Shown here: in pieces, positions 1 to 2,401 of the stretch
Position numbering within the stretch: position 1 is the stretch's first letter
How the letters are laid out: every line of letters starts with the position of its first letter
Origin: Rhizobiaceae bacterium
GTDB taxonomy: Bacteria; Pseudomonadota; Alphaproteobacteria; Rhizobiales; Rhizobiaceae
DNA length: 34,372 bases
NCBI GenBank assembly: GCA_016742175.1
Contig: JACVCH010000028.1
Coordinates: 1-34,372 of the forward strand
Direction: 5' to 3'
Notes under the pieces: model-generated
Told to the model about the DNA's origin: nothing
Databases searched by the model: none
The model's input: the letters and a program-made list of their open reading frames with translations, nothing else
Program-made: the position numbers and the translations under genes

Positions 1-775
1 CGCTATAGGTGAGCTTGAAGCAGGGCAGCCGGCCGACCAGCGCATGGAGCCGGTCCATCAACGCCGCAGCCTGCGTGCCGCTGGTGAAATTCTGGCGGAT
101 CAGCGTCTGCAGTGCCTCGCTTTCGCCTGCGCGTGAGAATTCCGCCGGGCCCTCGGCCGTTCGGTCGAGAAGCACGATGGCGCCGATCTCCCGCGCTGTG
201 CCGCGCGGCGCGAGCGCGCCGCAATCGGCGTCGAGATAGAGATAGCGGCCGTCATCGACCGCCGCATTGTCGGCGACGAACCGCCGGAACGCAGCCATCG
301 CGGCCGCGGGCAACGGCAGGCGCAGCCGCGGCGCGATGCCGAGCGCGACACCGCTTCGATCGTCAGGCGACAGCGGCAGGATGTCGTCGCCGAGCACCGT
401 GTGCCCGGCCGCCGCCAGCCGGGCGACGAGCGTGCTCTTGCCGGCATGCGAGTGGCTTGGAAAGACGACGAGCCGGCCGGCAAACTCGACCGCCGCGCCA
501 TGAAGGCACAGCACCGACGGCGTTTCCGCGATCATCGCGTCGACCACGTCAACGAGGAGCCCACAAACCGCCTCCACCGCACTCGCCTCGACTGGCTCGC
601 GGCCGGGCGAATGGAGCACGTAGCGCTCGCCGCGCTTCGTCACGTGGCTGGCGGGCTCCGCCTGTGCCGTCTCGACGACTGCCCAGTCGAATGCGGCTGC
701 CCGAAGCGCCCTTGCGAATTCGGCATCCTCGGGAATGTCGACGACGACATTCGTGTCTTCGAAACGGAAAAACAT
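1..775 (-). CDS. HPr-kinase-like P-loop protein, C-terminus cut by window edge
   Basis: At least 258 residues are visible. Residues 91-95 (LHGAA), the P-loop SHSHAGKST at 107-115 and the following GDD at 129-131 are in the order seen in the HPr kinase/phosphorylase (HprK) fold. The first P-loop glycine is replaced by Ser107. The ATG at 775 has a strong Shine-Dalgarno (AAGGGGG) 4 nt upstream. HprK homologues that do not act on HPr are known as tailoring kinases in peptide clusters; lasso-peptide kinases such as PadeK phosphorylate a serine in the precursor. The gene directly upstream makes a serine-rich small peptide, so I infer that peptide as the substrate. The protein has no signal peptide and should be cytoplasmic. 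Alternatives are the uncharacterised HprK-related kinase A/B families. Family assignment is fairly safe, substrate is inference. Confidence 0.8.
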   Translation of the reverse strand, partial: MFFRFEDTNVVVDIPEDAEFARALRAAAFDWAVVETAQAEPASHVTKRGERYVLHSPGREPVEASAVEAVCGLLVDVVDAMIAETPSVLCLHGAAVEFAGRLVVFPSHSHAGKSTLVARLAAAGHTVLGDDILPLSPDDRSGVALGIAPRLRLPLPAAAMAAFRRFVADNAAVDDGRYLYLDADCGALAPRGTAREIGAIVLLDRTAEGPAEFSRAGESEALQTLIRQNFTSGTQAAALMDRLHALVGRLPCFKLTYS

Positions 776-790
776 GATCCCCCTTGAAGG

Positions 791-813
791 CGGGACCGGC
801 AGGGCCGGCCCCG
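791..813 (-). other. RNA stem-loop between peptide gene and kinase gene
   Basis: The arms 791-800 and 804-813 form a 10-bp stem around a 3-nt loop. In RNA copied from the minus strand all ten positions pair, one as a G-U wobble; in plus-strand RNA the same position would be an A-C mismatch. It begins 7 nt after the peptide stop codon and ends just before the kinase ribosome binding site, and no U-tract follows. It may lower kinase expression relative to the peptide or stabilise the upstream message. Confidence 0.5.
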
Positions 814-820
814 CAAGGCG

Positions 821-1042
821 CTATCTGCTGAAGGAGCGACGCGAGAAGCTGCGCCGCGAAAAGCTGCTCCGCTCGCCGCGGATCGGCCGGCGCCAGCCGT
901 CGCGACGCCTGCGCCCGCTGAAACTCGATGCCTTCGCCTCGCCGATCTGCAGCAGCACCGGCGCCGCGTAGATGGCGCCTGCGGCCAGTCCGAGCTTCGC
1001 CAGCATGGCGCGGCGTGAAATCTTGGTCTTCGTGTCGTCCAT
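821..1042 (-). CDS. Small Tat-exported peptide with SFSRR repeats
   Basis: The product has 73 residues and no family I recognise. Residues 9-17 (SRRAMLAKL) are a twin-arginine motif; a hydrophobic stretch follows and ends at AKA (36-38), a typical signal peptidase site. Cleavage there would release 35 residues containing 13 arginines and 10 serines, ending in SFSRRSFSRRSFSR. The ATG at 1042 has GAGGAG 6 nt upstream. The leader aligns without gaps to that of the protease encoded upstream (25 of 40 identical). It lies 84 nt downstream of the protease gene and 45 nt upstream of the kinase gene, all on one strand. I infer a precursor or substrate peptide for its neighbours. A basic surface-binding or antimicrobial peptide is another possibility. 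Confidence 0.75.
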   Translation of the reverse strand: MDDTKTKISRRAMLAKLGLAAGAIYAAPVLLQIGEAKASSFSGRRRRDGWRRPIRGERSSFSRRSFSRRSFSR

Positions 1043-1126
1043 GACGATCTCCTCGCGTCTCGTGTCCCTTCGACATGGGGAGAACGGGCCAGGTCGCAGC
1101 CTATTCCATGAAATCTTCGTCGGGCC

Positions 1127-2401
1127 CTATCCGCCGGTCGGCATCAGGCGCGCGGCATCCGCATTGCAGATGGCGGGCGCCTGAACGAGGCCCCAACCGA
1201 AGGTCGCGTCGCGGCCCGGCTCGCCGAGATCGACCACGCCTTCCGCCAGCGCCTCGATGAGGTCGCCGGACGGCGCATCGGGTGCCGATGCGCGCGCGGC
1301 CGCCAGTGCGGCCGAAACGAAAGGCGCGGCATAGGATGTGCCTGAGCGATAACGCCCGCCGCTGACAGAAGCGGCCGTCCAGAGCTGGACGCCGGGCGCG
1401 GAGAAGTCGACATGGTCGCCGGCATTGGCGCGGCGGTAGATGCGGCTCTGGCTGTCCACCGCCGTCACCGCGACCACGCCGTCATAGGCTGCGGGGAAGA
1501 GCGGATCGGCGTTCGGCCCGGCATTGCCGGCTGCCGCGACGAGGATCATGTCCTTGGCGAGCGCCGCATCGACGATGGTCTTCAGAACCGCATTGTCCGG
1601 GCCGGTGAAGCTCAGATTGACGACGCGAAGATCGCGCGCGACCATCGCGTCGAGCGCGCGTACGACGTCGAACGTGTCGGCCGCGTCATTGCCGCTCGCA
1701 TCCTTGTGGAAGGCTTCCGCCGCCACGATCCGCGCGCCCGAAAGCAGCCCCGGCGTTCGCGTGTCGGCCCGCCCCGCCATCAGGATGGCGACCGCCGTGC
1801 CGTGCACCGCGCCGCTCGGCTGACGGCCTTCGGCGATGACCGGGAAGGTCTCGATCGCGACGTCGGCAAGCGCGGCGTGGTCGCCGTTTACCGTCGTGTC
1901 GACCATGCCGATGACCGTATCGGCAGGGCAGCCATGGGCCGCGCTCTTCCAGCCGATCAGGTCGAAGGCGGCGCAGCTTTCCTCGCCGCACGCCATTTCC
2001 TCGGGCCGGTAGATCGCGTTGATGTCGAAGATCGCGGCCGGCACCAGGCCGGCGATCTGCGCCCGCGCCTCGTCGATCGTCAGGTTCGCCGGCACGACGA
2101 AGCGACCGAGTTCGGACGCGGTCGCGGCGATGCTCGCGCGCGACAGGAGTTCGTAGCCTTCGGCGCTGATCGCGTCGATCGCGGCCGCATCGGGCGCGCT
2201 GACGACGATTTCGGGGCGCGGCGGTGGCGGCGCAGCCCGCTGCACCGGCCTTGCCCGGCGCACCGGCCCGCTGAACGATACGGAGGATGCACGGGCAGCG
2301 CCGAGCGACATCAGCACGGGCGCCGCATAGACCGCGCCCGCCGCAAGGCCGAGCCGCATCAGCATGCGGCGGCGGATCGGGTCGAATTCAGTGTCGGACA
2401 T
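1127..2401 (-). CDS. Tat-exported S8 (subtilisin-like) serine protease
   Basis: The protein has 424 residues. A twin-arginine motif (IRRRMLMRL, 9-17) and hydrophobic segment end at ARA (36-38), so the enzyme should act outside the cytoplasm. A linker rich in Pro and Arg (about 45-63) precedes a short domain and then the S8 catalytic domain. The triad is visible: Asp168 (IGMVDTTVNG), His200 (VHGTAVA) and Ser356 (RSGTSYAAP), with the oxyanion Asn293 in AAAGNAGP. The ATG at 2401 follows a GGGAG. It is the first gene of the operon with the Tat peptide and the HprK-like gene. The near-identical leader suggests protease and peptide are sorted together, perhaps with the peptide as substrate or inhibitor. 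Enzyme class is certain, target is inference. Confidence 0.92.
   Translation of the reverse strand: MSDTEFDPIRRRMLMRLGLAAGAVYAAPVLMSLGAARASSVSFSGPVRRARPVQRAAPPPPRPEIVVSAPDAAAIDAISAEGYELLSRASIAATASELGRFVVPANLTIDEARAQIAGLVPAAIFDINAIYRPEEMACGEESCAAFDLIGWKSAAHGCPADTVIGMVDTTVNGDHAALADVAIETFPVIAEGRQPSGAVHGTAVAILMAGRADTRTPGLLSGARIVAAEAFHKDASGNDAADTFDVVRALDAMVARDLRVVNLSFTGPDNAVLKTIVDAALAKDMILVAAAGNAGPNADPLFPAAYDGVVAVTAVDSQSRIYRRANAGDHVDFSAPGVQLWTAASVSGGRYRSGTSYAAPFVSAALAAARASAPDAPSGDLIEALAEGVVDLGEPGRDATFGWGLVQAPAICNADAARLMPTGG

What the first reader, a model, noticed from the sequence alone, without database searches (positions are those of the whole stretch)
1..2401. Candidate new peptide system: S8 protease, Tat-exported SFSRR peptide and HprK-like kinase
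Three co-directional genes combine a serine/arginine-rich 73-residue peptide, a P-loop kinase of the HPr-kinase fold and a subtilisin-like protease sent out by the same Tat leader type. HprK-type kinases phosphorylate serines in some lasso-peptide precursors (established for PadeK-like enzymes). Tat exports proteins after cytoplasmic modification, so phosphorylation in the cytoplasm, then export, then processing by the protease is a coherent but unproven route. The operon continues past the window edge.
Basis: partly seen in the sequence, partly recalled or inferred. Interest (0 to 1): 0.85.

Follow-up and report, generated by a model that had tools for sequence, protein, structure and literature searches.

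The report
Tat-exported peptide with its own kinase
Inside a phenylacetate-degradation region, this bacterium carries a three-gene module in which a kinase with a built-in peptide-recognition domain probably modifies a small serine-rich peptide (and perhaps a protease) by gripping the same signal that later sends them out of the cell.

Summary
The three genes are real: a Tat-leader S8 protease, a 73-aa Tat-leader Ser/Arg peptide and an HprK-like kinase cut by the contig end. The missing kinase end (contig C15 and relatives) encodes a PqqD/RRE domain, best matched by lasso and LPP RREs. The core unit is peptide plus kinase: 61 of 69 kinase loci have a Tat-leader ORF just upstream; an S8 gene was seen in 16 of 69. 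The Tat leaders carry the known RRE-binding motif YxxPx[L/F/M...] (59 of 61; 0 of 38 Tat-like ORFs from the flanks). Of 385 class genomes, 33 of 35 with the leader also have the kinase, sometimes on different contigs. Twelve of 16 S8 proteases carry the same leader, several with a Ser-rich tract like their own peptide's, so the protease may be a second substrate. Model: the RRE-kinase binds YxxP inside the Tat signal, phosphorylates serine in the cytoplasm, then the product leaves by Tat. Phosphorylation, binding and final function are inferred. Closest known: Bacillota LPPs (2026); this is a Tat-exported variant whose host genome shows no LPP-type NTase, archaeal-type signal peptidase or lasso B2 peptidase.

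The parts
1127..2401 (-). Tat-leader S8 (subtilisin-like) protease, 424 aa
   Evidence: Pfam Peptidase_S8 E 9.6e-25; D168, H200, S356 invariant in 14 aligned sequences including this one
2312..2329 (-). YAAPVL (residues 25-30), RRE-type motif inside the Tat leader of the S8 protease
   Evidence: sequence; 12 of 16 S8-bearing loci carry Tat+YxxP on the protease
821..1042 (-). 73-aa Tat-leader Ser/Arg-rich peptide (precursor)
   Evidence: purifying selection; conserved in G001, G002, G004
953..970 (-). YAAPVL (residues 25-30), RRE-type motif inside the Tat leader of the peptide
   Evidence: 59 of 61 upstream peptides carry YxxPx[LVIAFYM]; in an alignment of all 61, Y in 59 and P in 60
824..928 (-). 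Predicted exported part after AKA|SS (residues 39-73): 10 Ser and 13 Arg in 35 residues, with SFSRRSFSRRSFSR at the end
   Evidence: sequence; end unchanged in 4 species; cleavage site inferred from the AxA pattern
2..775 (-). HprK-like kinase, residues 1-258 of ~395; the rest, with the PqqD/RRE domain, is at contig C15:2-424
   Evidence: alignment A2; H92, K113, D131 in 57 of 57 and D130 in 56 of 57; C15 piece; AF2 model of the 87% identical relative
428..460 (-). Kinase P-loop region (residues 106-116, ending AGKSTL)
   Evidence: A111, G112, K113, S114, T115, L116 invariant in 57 kinases

Best explanation
A RiPP-like, Tat-exported peptide system. The kinase is an HprK-type P-loop kinase joined to a PqqD/RRE domain. 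The RRE binds the YxxPx[L] motif that sits in the hydrophobic core of the Tat signal peptide, so one leader serves both as kinase-docking leader and as export signal. While bound, the kinase phosphorylates serine(s) of the Ser-rich tail in the cytoplasm, and binding would also hide the Tat signal until modification is done. Tat then exports the peptide and signal peptidase removes the leader at AxA, so no dedicated leader peptidase, transporter or nucleotidyltransferase is needed. In the S8 subset the protease carries the same leader, often with a Ser-rich tract, and is probably a second substrate that ends up beside the peptide in the envelope, where it may process it. Shown by computation: the genes, the RRE domain, the catalytic residues, the motif, its rarity in other Tat-like leaders and the co-occurrence. 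Inferred: RRE-leader binding, phosphorylation, order of events and role of the protease.
For: PqqD in 56 of 57 kinases. PDB profile search: TbiB1 5v1u E 5e-11, LppB 9x8z 3e-8, PbaB1 9x90 3e-7; HPr kinases 0.003-0.01. HKDD set: H, K and second D in 57 of 57, first D in 56 of 57. LppB residues that touch YxxP: N33-equivalent N in 44 of 56, D70-equivalent D in 51 of 56 (roles from PMC13381572 sections 8 and 10). Tat-leader ORF upstream in 61 of 69 loci, found without using the motif; motif in 59 of 61, Tyr at RR+15 in 51. In an alignment of all 61, not selected for the motif, Y stands in 59, P in 60, the -3 and -1 Ala in 60 each, one L in 58 and one G in 57. Controls: 0 of 38 Tat-like ORFs called in the flanks. 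The leader profile rings at 3 places in the host genome at E <= 1e-5 (19 of 57 first-look candidates scored): both peptides and this S8. Co-occurrence: kinase in 33 of 35 leader-positive and 11 of 350 leader-negative genomes, p 7e-36. Of 29 class loci scanned (one, L178, repeats L082), 17 have an upstream Tat peptide with ribosome site, all 17 with the motif. Tails pooled 21% Ser. AF2 pLDDT 93; Foldseek finds PEPCK, TbiB1 (TM 0.82 to target) and HprK/P. Precedents LppK and BsfK.
Against: No phosphorylation or binding data. Pfam Hpr_kinase_C is below its cut-off (13.5 vs 33.3); TIGR04352 scores 43-49 bits against 200. The best Foldseek hits are PEPCKs, which share the P-loop fold (recalled). 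LppK puts several phosphates on one Ser, not on repeats, and in BsfA the Y(-17)A change did not affect phosphorylation. Tails in a sister clade are short PSPC...C, not Ser-rich. The N33-equivalent is D in 11 and S in 1 of 56, including system B. Two genomes have leader peptides but no kinase at 1e-6; 11 of 44 kinase-positive genomes have no leader hit. 8 of 69 loci gave no peptide in the strict scan and 12 of 29 gave none. Leaders and kinases are homologous, so counts are not independent events; the leader profile A3 was built from leaders that carry the motif.
Confidence: 0.7

Rival explanations
1. As in LPPs and BsfA, the kinase modifies a single serine near the leader-core junction (possibly with several phosphates); the Ser/Arg/Gly repeats are a structural tail and not the target.
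For: LppK acts on S3 only and BsfK on Ser3. Many tails begin with Ser just after the predicted AxA site (30 of 61 have Ser at that position), and sister-clade tails keep one Ser/Thr before Pro-Cys.
Against: Ser is enriched throughout tails (21% pooled, at least 4 Ser in 60 of 61) while the other residues (Arg, Asp, Gly, Pro) vary between lineages; several S8 tracts resemble the repeats.
Confidence: 0.35
2. The module is an envelope signalling system: S8 protease and Ser-rich peptide sense damage, the protease cuts the anti-sigma factor, and the linked ECF sigma factor answers.
For: ECF sigma in 13 and anti-sigma in 11 of 57 loci; 12 of the 13 ECF-linked loci also hold an S8 gene (S8 in 15 of 57). 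System B of the host has this layout.
Against: System A in the window has no sigma factor beside it; no S8 gene was seen in 53 of 69 kinase loci, 11 of the 69 being shorter than 6 kb; it does not explain the RRE-kinase.
Confidence: 0.12
3. Antimicrobial or lasso-type peptide: a bacteriocin-like RiPP made, exported and matured by the protease.
For: HprK-like kinase and RRE are typical of lasso tailoring.
Against: No lasso B2 peptidase (PF13471) or NTase (PF14907) match in the host genome; no transporter among nine flanking genes; in 12 of 16 Halomonadaceae loci the same proS-like gene (name recalled) lies in the flank, a fixed place unlike most bacteriocin clusters (recalled).
Confidence: 0.08
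4. The kinase acts on another cellular target and is only a neighbour of an ordinary Tat-exported low-complexity protein.
For: Function of HprK homologues in general (recalled); no biochemical data here.
Against: Leader and kinase co-occur even when 25-120 kb apart or on different contigs; YxxP motif plus matching RRE residues.
Confidence: 0.05

Closest known systems
Linear polyphosphorylated peptides (LPP; LppA/LppK/LppB/LppS/LppD/LppN), Bacillota, PMC13381572 (sections 6, 8, 10 and passages read)
   Same: HprK-like kinase, PqqD-type RRE, leader with YxxP motif, variable tail, linear product expected; LPPs and a sister clade of the present system both lie in polysaccharide clusters
   Different: Here the leader is a Tat signal peptide, the RRE is fused to the kinase, no NTase or archaeal-type signal peptidase match exists in the genome, tails are Ser-rich repeats, and an S8 protease shares the leader; hosts are mainly Alphaproteobacteria, Halomonadaceae and Desulfovibrionaceae
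Phosphorylated lasso peptides (PadeK, ThcoK; BsfK), PMC9266682 and PMC10368454 (passages read)
   Same: HprK-like Ser kinase with His-Lys-Asp-Asp set; the RRE BsfB1 speeds phosphorylation
   Different: No B2 leader peptidase (PF13471) match in the genome, no lasso-type core; macrolactam synthetase not searched for genome-wide, none among nine flanking genes
Bufferins (MNIO RiPPs with Sec signal peptides), PMC12452194 (passages read)
   Same: Export signal takes the place of the leader; its authors ask how premature export is prevented
   Different: Sec not Tat, oxidative MNIO enzyme instead of kinase; no YxxP/RRE pair in the passages seen
HprK-related kinase A (NCBIfam TIGR04352)
   Same: nearest curated kinase model, 43-49 bits
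   Different: far below the 200-bit cut-off; C-terminal PqqD fusion; Tat peptide partner

Membership tests
LPP | HprK-like kinase | tested here: met
   HKDD set conserved; HPr kinases found by profile
LPP | RRE (PqqD) and YxxP leader motif | tested here: met
   the RRE is fused rather than discrete
LPP | NTP transferase (PF14907) | tested here: not met
   0 matches in G000, G001, G002, G004; 5 of the 15 kinase-bearing genomes searched have one
LPP | SipW-type (archaeal-type) leader peptidase | tested here: not met
   TIGR02228: 0 of 4 genomes of the genus, while control genomes such as B. subtilis ring
LPP | MsbA-like exporter in the cluster | tested here: not met
   none among nine genes flanking the trio in G001 and the thioesterase; ABC exporters elsewhere in the genome not examined
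Lasso peptide | B2 peptidase (PF13471) | tested here: not met
   0 matches in the host genome; 2 of 15 genomes match
RiPP (general) | genetically encoded precursor with leader, plus dedicated modifying enzyme that recognises it | tested here: inconclusive
   anatomy fits; no modification shown
HprK/P (HPr kinase/phosphorylase) | curated Pfam/NCBIfam scores | tested here: not met
   PF07475 13.5 bits vs 33.3; TIGR00679 13 vs 240, on the cut window copy
Cyanobactin PatA or QhpE maturation protease | curated score | tested here: not met
   TIGR03895 56 vs 421; NF049966 69 vs 165
Tat substrate | twin-arginine motif, h-region, AxA site | tested here: met
   present in the sequence; Ala at -3 and -1 in 60 of 61 relatives; Tat models score below cut-off (TIGR01409 11.3 vs 16.7); export itself not testable here

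The most novel reading that the evidence does not exclude
A signal peptide that is at the same time an RRE leader: the kinase's RRE clamps YxxP in the Tat h-region and so works as a Tat proofreading chaperone, and the same leader plus Ser-rich tract is a portable 'phospho-tag' carried by both a small scaffold peptide and a subtilisin, co-sorting them to the cell envelope: a bacterial analogue of Ser/Arg-repeat proteins with a dedicated kinase, widespread in Proteobacteria.
Probability: 0.3. Interest if true: 0.9.

Novelty: new variant of a known kind. Interest (0 to 1): 0.77.

Why it matters
It would answer a question put in print for signal-peptide RiPPs (how export is held back until modification is complete; PMC12452194, passages seen): the recognition motif lies inside the export signal. 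It extends HprK-type peptide phosphorylation from lasso and Bacillota LPP clusters to a Tat-exported system (leader and kinase together in 33 of 385 sampled class genomes), suggests a protease as co-substrate, and every step is testable with two or three small genes.

Tried and rejected
Lasso peptide, LPP proper, HprK/P, cyanobactin/QhpE protease: rejected by the tests above. Defence system: PADLOC gave nothing for kinase and peptide at 0.01, and two subtilase-type models (PDLC03014, PDLC02197) for the S8. The idea that the trio is the general unit was dropped. A control with PF10518 Tat proteins (seven genomes) gave 41 frames from 30 loci, antisense frames and orthologues included, 1 with the motif (L177), and that match lies after the signal. 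L063 was picked in a wrong frame; the right peptide has YSAPTF. L078 has a peptide (YTVPAF) that the strict filter missed. L065 lacks the Tyr. L048 has its peptide split over two frames. L039 and L119 are at contig ends, L041 is a broken kinase, L066 a remote relative; in L077 and L098 nothing was found. Of the 30 loci, L180 (own genome) was left out, so 29 were scanned; 12 of 29 gave no peptide by its rule. The S8/peptide repeat-sharing test (12 loci: own 0.157, other 0.073, 0 of 20,000 shuffles as high) does not correct for relatedness, and the four nearly identical system-A loci share little (0.02-0.03); the script also preferred S8 starts that give a Tat+YxxP leader. S8 counts differ by method: 15 of 57 by clustering, 16 of 69 by motif (where L122 is missed). 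Literature: no paper in the listings was recognised, from its title and abstract start, as describing this system; most listed papers were not opened, and only open-licence PMC papers are held.
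Full report
What is there. At its left end three minus-strand genes follow each other: an S8 protease with a Tat leader (1127-2401), a 73-residue Tat-leader peptide ending SFSRRSFSRRSFSR (821-1042), and an HprK-like kinase (2-775) that runs off the contig. A piece encoding the rest of the kinase is at C15:2-424 of the same assembly, followed by a convergent PaaI-like gene and a paaA-like gene. In G001, G002 and G004 the kinase is whole (392-395 aa) and the trio sits between paaX and a thioesterase plus paaABCDE (Pfam of the flanking genes in G001). 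In G003 the collinear locus has paaX and paaA as neighbours, without the trio and without the thioesterase, and no kinase was found in that genome. So the module looks self-contained. The host genome also has a second, divergent set (C32) with an ECF sigma factor, an anti-sigma factor, an S8 protease with another type of signal, a Tat-leader Gly/Ser-rich peptide and a kinase.

The small ORF is a gene. Window versus G001: dS 0.38, dN 0.012; three other comparisons dS 0.51-0.78, dN 0.085-0.094. The SFSRRSFSRRSFSR end is unchanged in the four species.

The kinase. The full protein has a C-terminal PqqD domain (Pfam E 4.6e-12 for G001), found in 56 of 57 aligned kinases, the exception being the cut window copy. 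The PqqD half is closest, among solved structures, to lasso and LPP recognition elements: TbiB1 (5e-11), LppB (3e-8), PbaB1 (3e-7), TfuB1 (7e-6); the kinase half finds HPr kinases at 0.003-0.01. His, Lys and the second Asp of the HKDD set known from lasso kinases (PMC9266682, passages) are present in 57 of 57, the first Asp in 56 of 57 (which columns correspond to the published four is my assignment). The AlphaFold2 model of the 87% identical G001 kinase has mean pLDDT 93 and pTM 0.91; Foldseek lists PEPCKs first, then TbiB1 (TM 0.82 normalised to target) and HprK/P. In other genomes kinase and PqqD are separate adjacent genes (G096; several).

The leader. Lasso and LPP recognition elements bind [Y/W]xxPx[L/V/I/F/A] in the leader (PMC13381572, sections 6, 8 and 10 read). 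The Tat leaders here carry this motif inside the hydrophobic core. I collected 69 loci with the kinase, dropping repeats of the same place; some genomes give two loci. A scan that did not use the motif found a Tat-leader ORF next to the kinase in 61 of 69, and 59 of these 61 have YxxPx[LVIAFYM]; the Tyr is 15 residues after the twin arginine in 51. In an alignment of all 61, the best-kept positions outside the RR used for finding them are P (60), the -3 and -1 Ala (60 each), Y (59), one L (58) and one G (57). Controls: 0 of 38 Tat-like ORFs called in the flanks; Tat proteins of seven genomes, 1 of 41 frames and that one after the signal. In the host genome the leader profile (built from 35 motif-bearing leaders) rings three times at 1e-5, 19 of 57 first-look candidates being scored: this peptide, this S8 protease and the peptide of system B. 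LppB's N33 and D70, which hold the Pro and Tyr of YxxP, correspond to N in 44 of 56 and D in 51 of 56 of the kinases (system B has D at the first).

Co-occurrence. Two searches of 385 genomes drawn from the class (same handles, taken as the same draw): 44 have the kinase (E <= 1e-15), 35 the leader (E <= 1e-5), 33 both; Fisher p 7e-36. A re-search of the two leader-only genomes at 1e-6 found no kinase. Eleven kinase-positive genomes have no leader hit. In some of these genomes kinase and peptide are 25-120 kb apart or on different contigs, so neighbourhood alone does not explain the association. In 29 loci of the class search (one, L178, repeats L082), 17 had an upstream Tat peptide with a ribosome site and all 17 had the motif; 12 gave none. 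These counts are not corrected for relatedness.

The tails. After the leader the peptides have low-complexity tails, pooled 21% Ser, 21% Gly, 16% Arg, 7% Pro; 60 of 61 have at least four Ser (one tail taken in a wrong frame). The partner residue changes by lineage: SYSRP repeats in Halomonadaceae, SRP in Yoonia and Loktanella, Asp-rich in Shimia, RS repeats in G096. Where kinase and peptide are far apart the tails are mostly short with PSPC...C-like ends instead, which argues against Ser repeats as the only target.

The protease. S8 genes were seen in 16 of 69 loci, a lower bound because 11 of the 69 are shorter than 6 kb; 12 of the 16 proteases have a Tat leader with YxxP. D168, H200 and S356 are invariant in 14 aligned proteins. 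Right after the leader several carry a Ser-rich tract that resembles their own peptide (for example SFSAPSFSAPSFSAPS in Arsenicitalea, SRPSRPSRPSRP in a Loktanella MAG). Shared tripeptides over 12 loci: own pair 0.157, other pairs 0.073, 0 of 20,000 shuffles as high, relatedness not corrected, system-A loci contributing little. I read this as the protease being a second client of the kinase. ECF sigma and anti-sigma genes accompany this S8 subset (13 and 11 of 57 loci), not the window copy.

Mechanism. Best reading: the RRE half grips YxxP in the Tat signal, the kinase half phosphorylates Ser, release exposes the signal, Tat exports, signal peptidase I removes the leader. RRE help to an HprK-like peptide kinase has precedent (BsfB1/BsfK, PMC10368454, abstract and passages; there the Tyr-to-Ala change did not affect phosphorylation, a result against strict dependence). 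LppK modifies one Ser only, so single-site modification is the main rival. Masking of a signal peptide by the modifying complex was proposed for bufferins (PMC12452194, passages).

Relation to the known. It does not meet the lasso test (no PF13471 match in the host genome) nor the full LPP set (no PF14907 match; no archaeal-type signal peptidase match in four genomes of the genus; no exporter among the scanned flanking genes). A sister clade links the two: in G480 the split kinase and PqqD genes lie near an ABC transporter, a HlyD-type adaptor, a PF14907 NTase, a calcineurin-like phosphatase and polysaccharide export genes, with the Tat/YxxP peptide about 40 kb away; gene families of this cluster recur in G537, G747 and in part G667. 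LPP clusters in Bacillota are also described in capsule loci. The window module looks like a stripped form that relies on Tat.

Limits. No biochemistry. The leader is a predicted Tat signal; the curated Tat model scores it below cut-off. The papers searched are open-licence PMC papers only; searches whose listings showed no description of this system are.

Noticed in passing
L240-L251 (G747, G537, G480, G667): Alphaproteobacterial LPP-like exopolysaccharide region: kinase and PqqD beside ABC/HlyD genes, polysaccharide export genes, and in G480 a PF14907 NTase and a calcineurin-like phosphatase (families recurring in G537 and G747), with Tat/YxxP peptides with PSPC-like tails about 26-41 kb away.
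   Followed up: partly
L040:9021-10665 (G096): Tat-leader peptide with an Arg-Ser repeat domain (KSRSRSRSKSRS...), followed by separate HprK-like and PqqD genes: a bacterial look-alike of SR proteins with a kinase.
   Followed up: partly
L048 (G002, system B): The peptide of system B appears split over two frames inside its Gly repeat; assembly error or true loss is not decided.
   Followed up: no
L036 (G001, system B): System B with sigma and anti-sigma genes, peptide and kinase but no S8 gene called between the dodecin-like gene and the ECF gene, unlike the other genomes of the genus.
   Followed up: no
G565 and G824 (L234): Leader peptides without a detectable kinase in near-complete genomes.
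   Followed up: partly
L047:9854-11280 (G084): A PqqD-like domain in front of an HprK-like one in a single ORF, with an adjacent Tat-like 81-aa ORF that lacks YxxP, next to a nucleotidyltransferase-like gene (domain names by sequence reading).
   Followed up: no
window 2461-34372: The rest of the window looks like a phenylacetate and related aromatic-degradation and uptake region (PaaX and TetR by Pfam; other names by sequence reading).
   Followed up: partly
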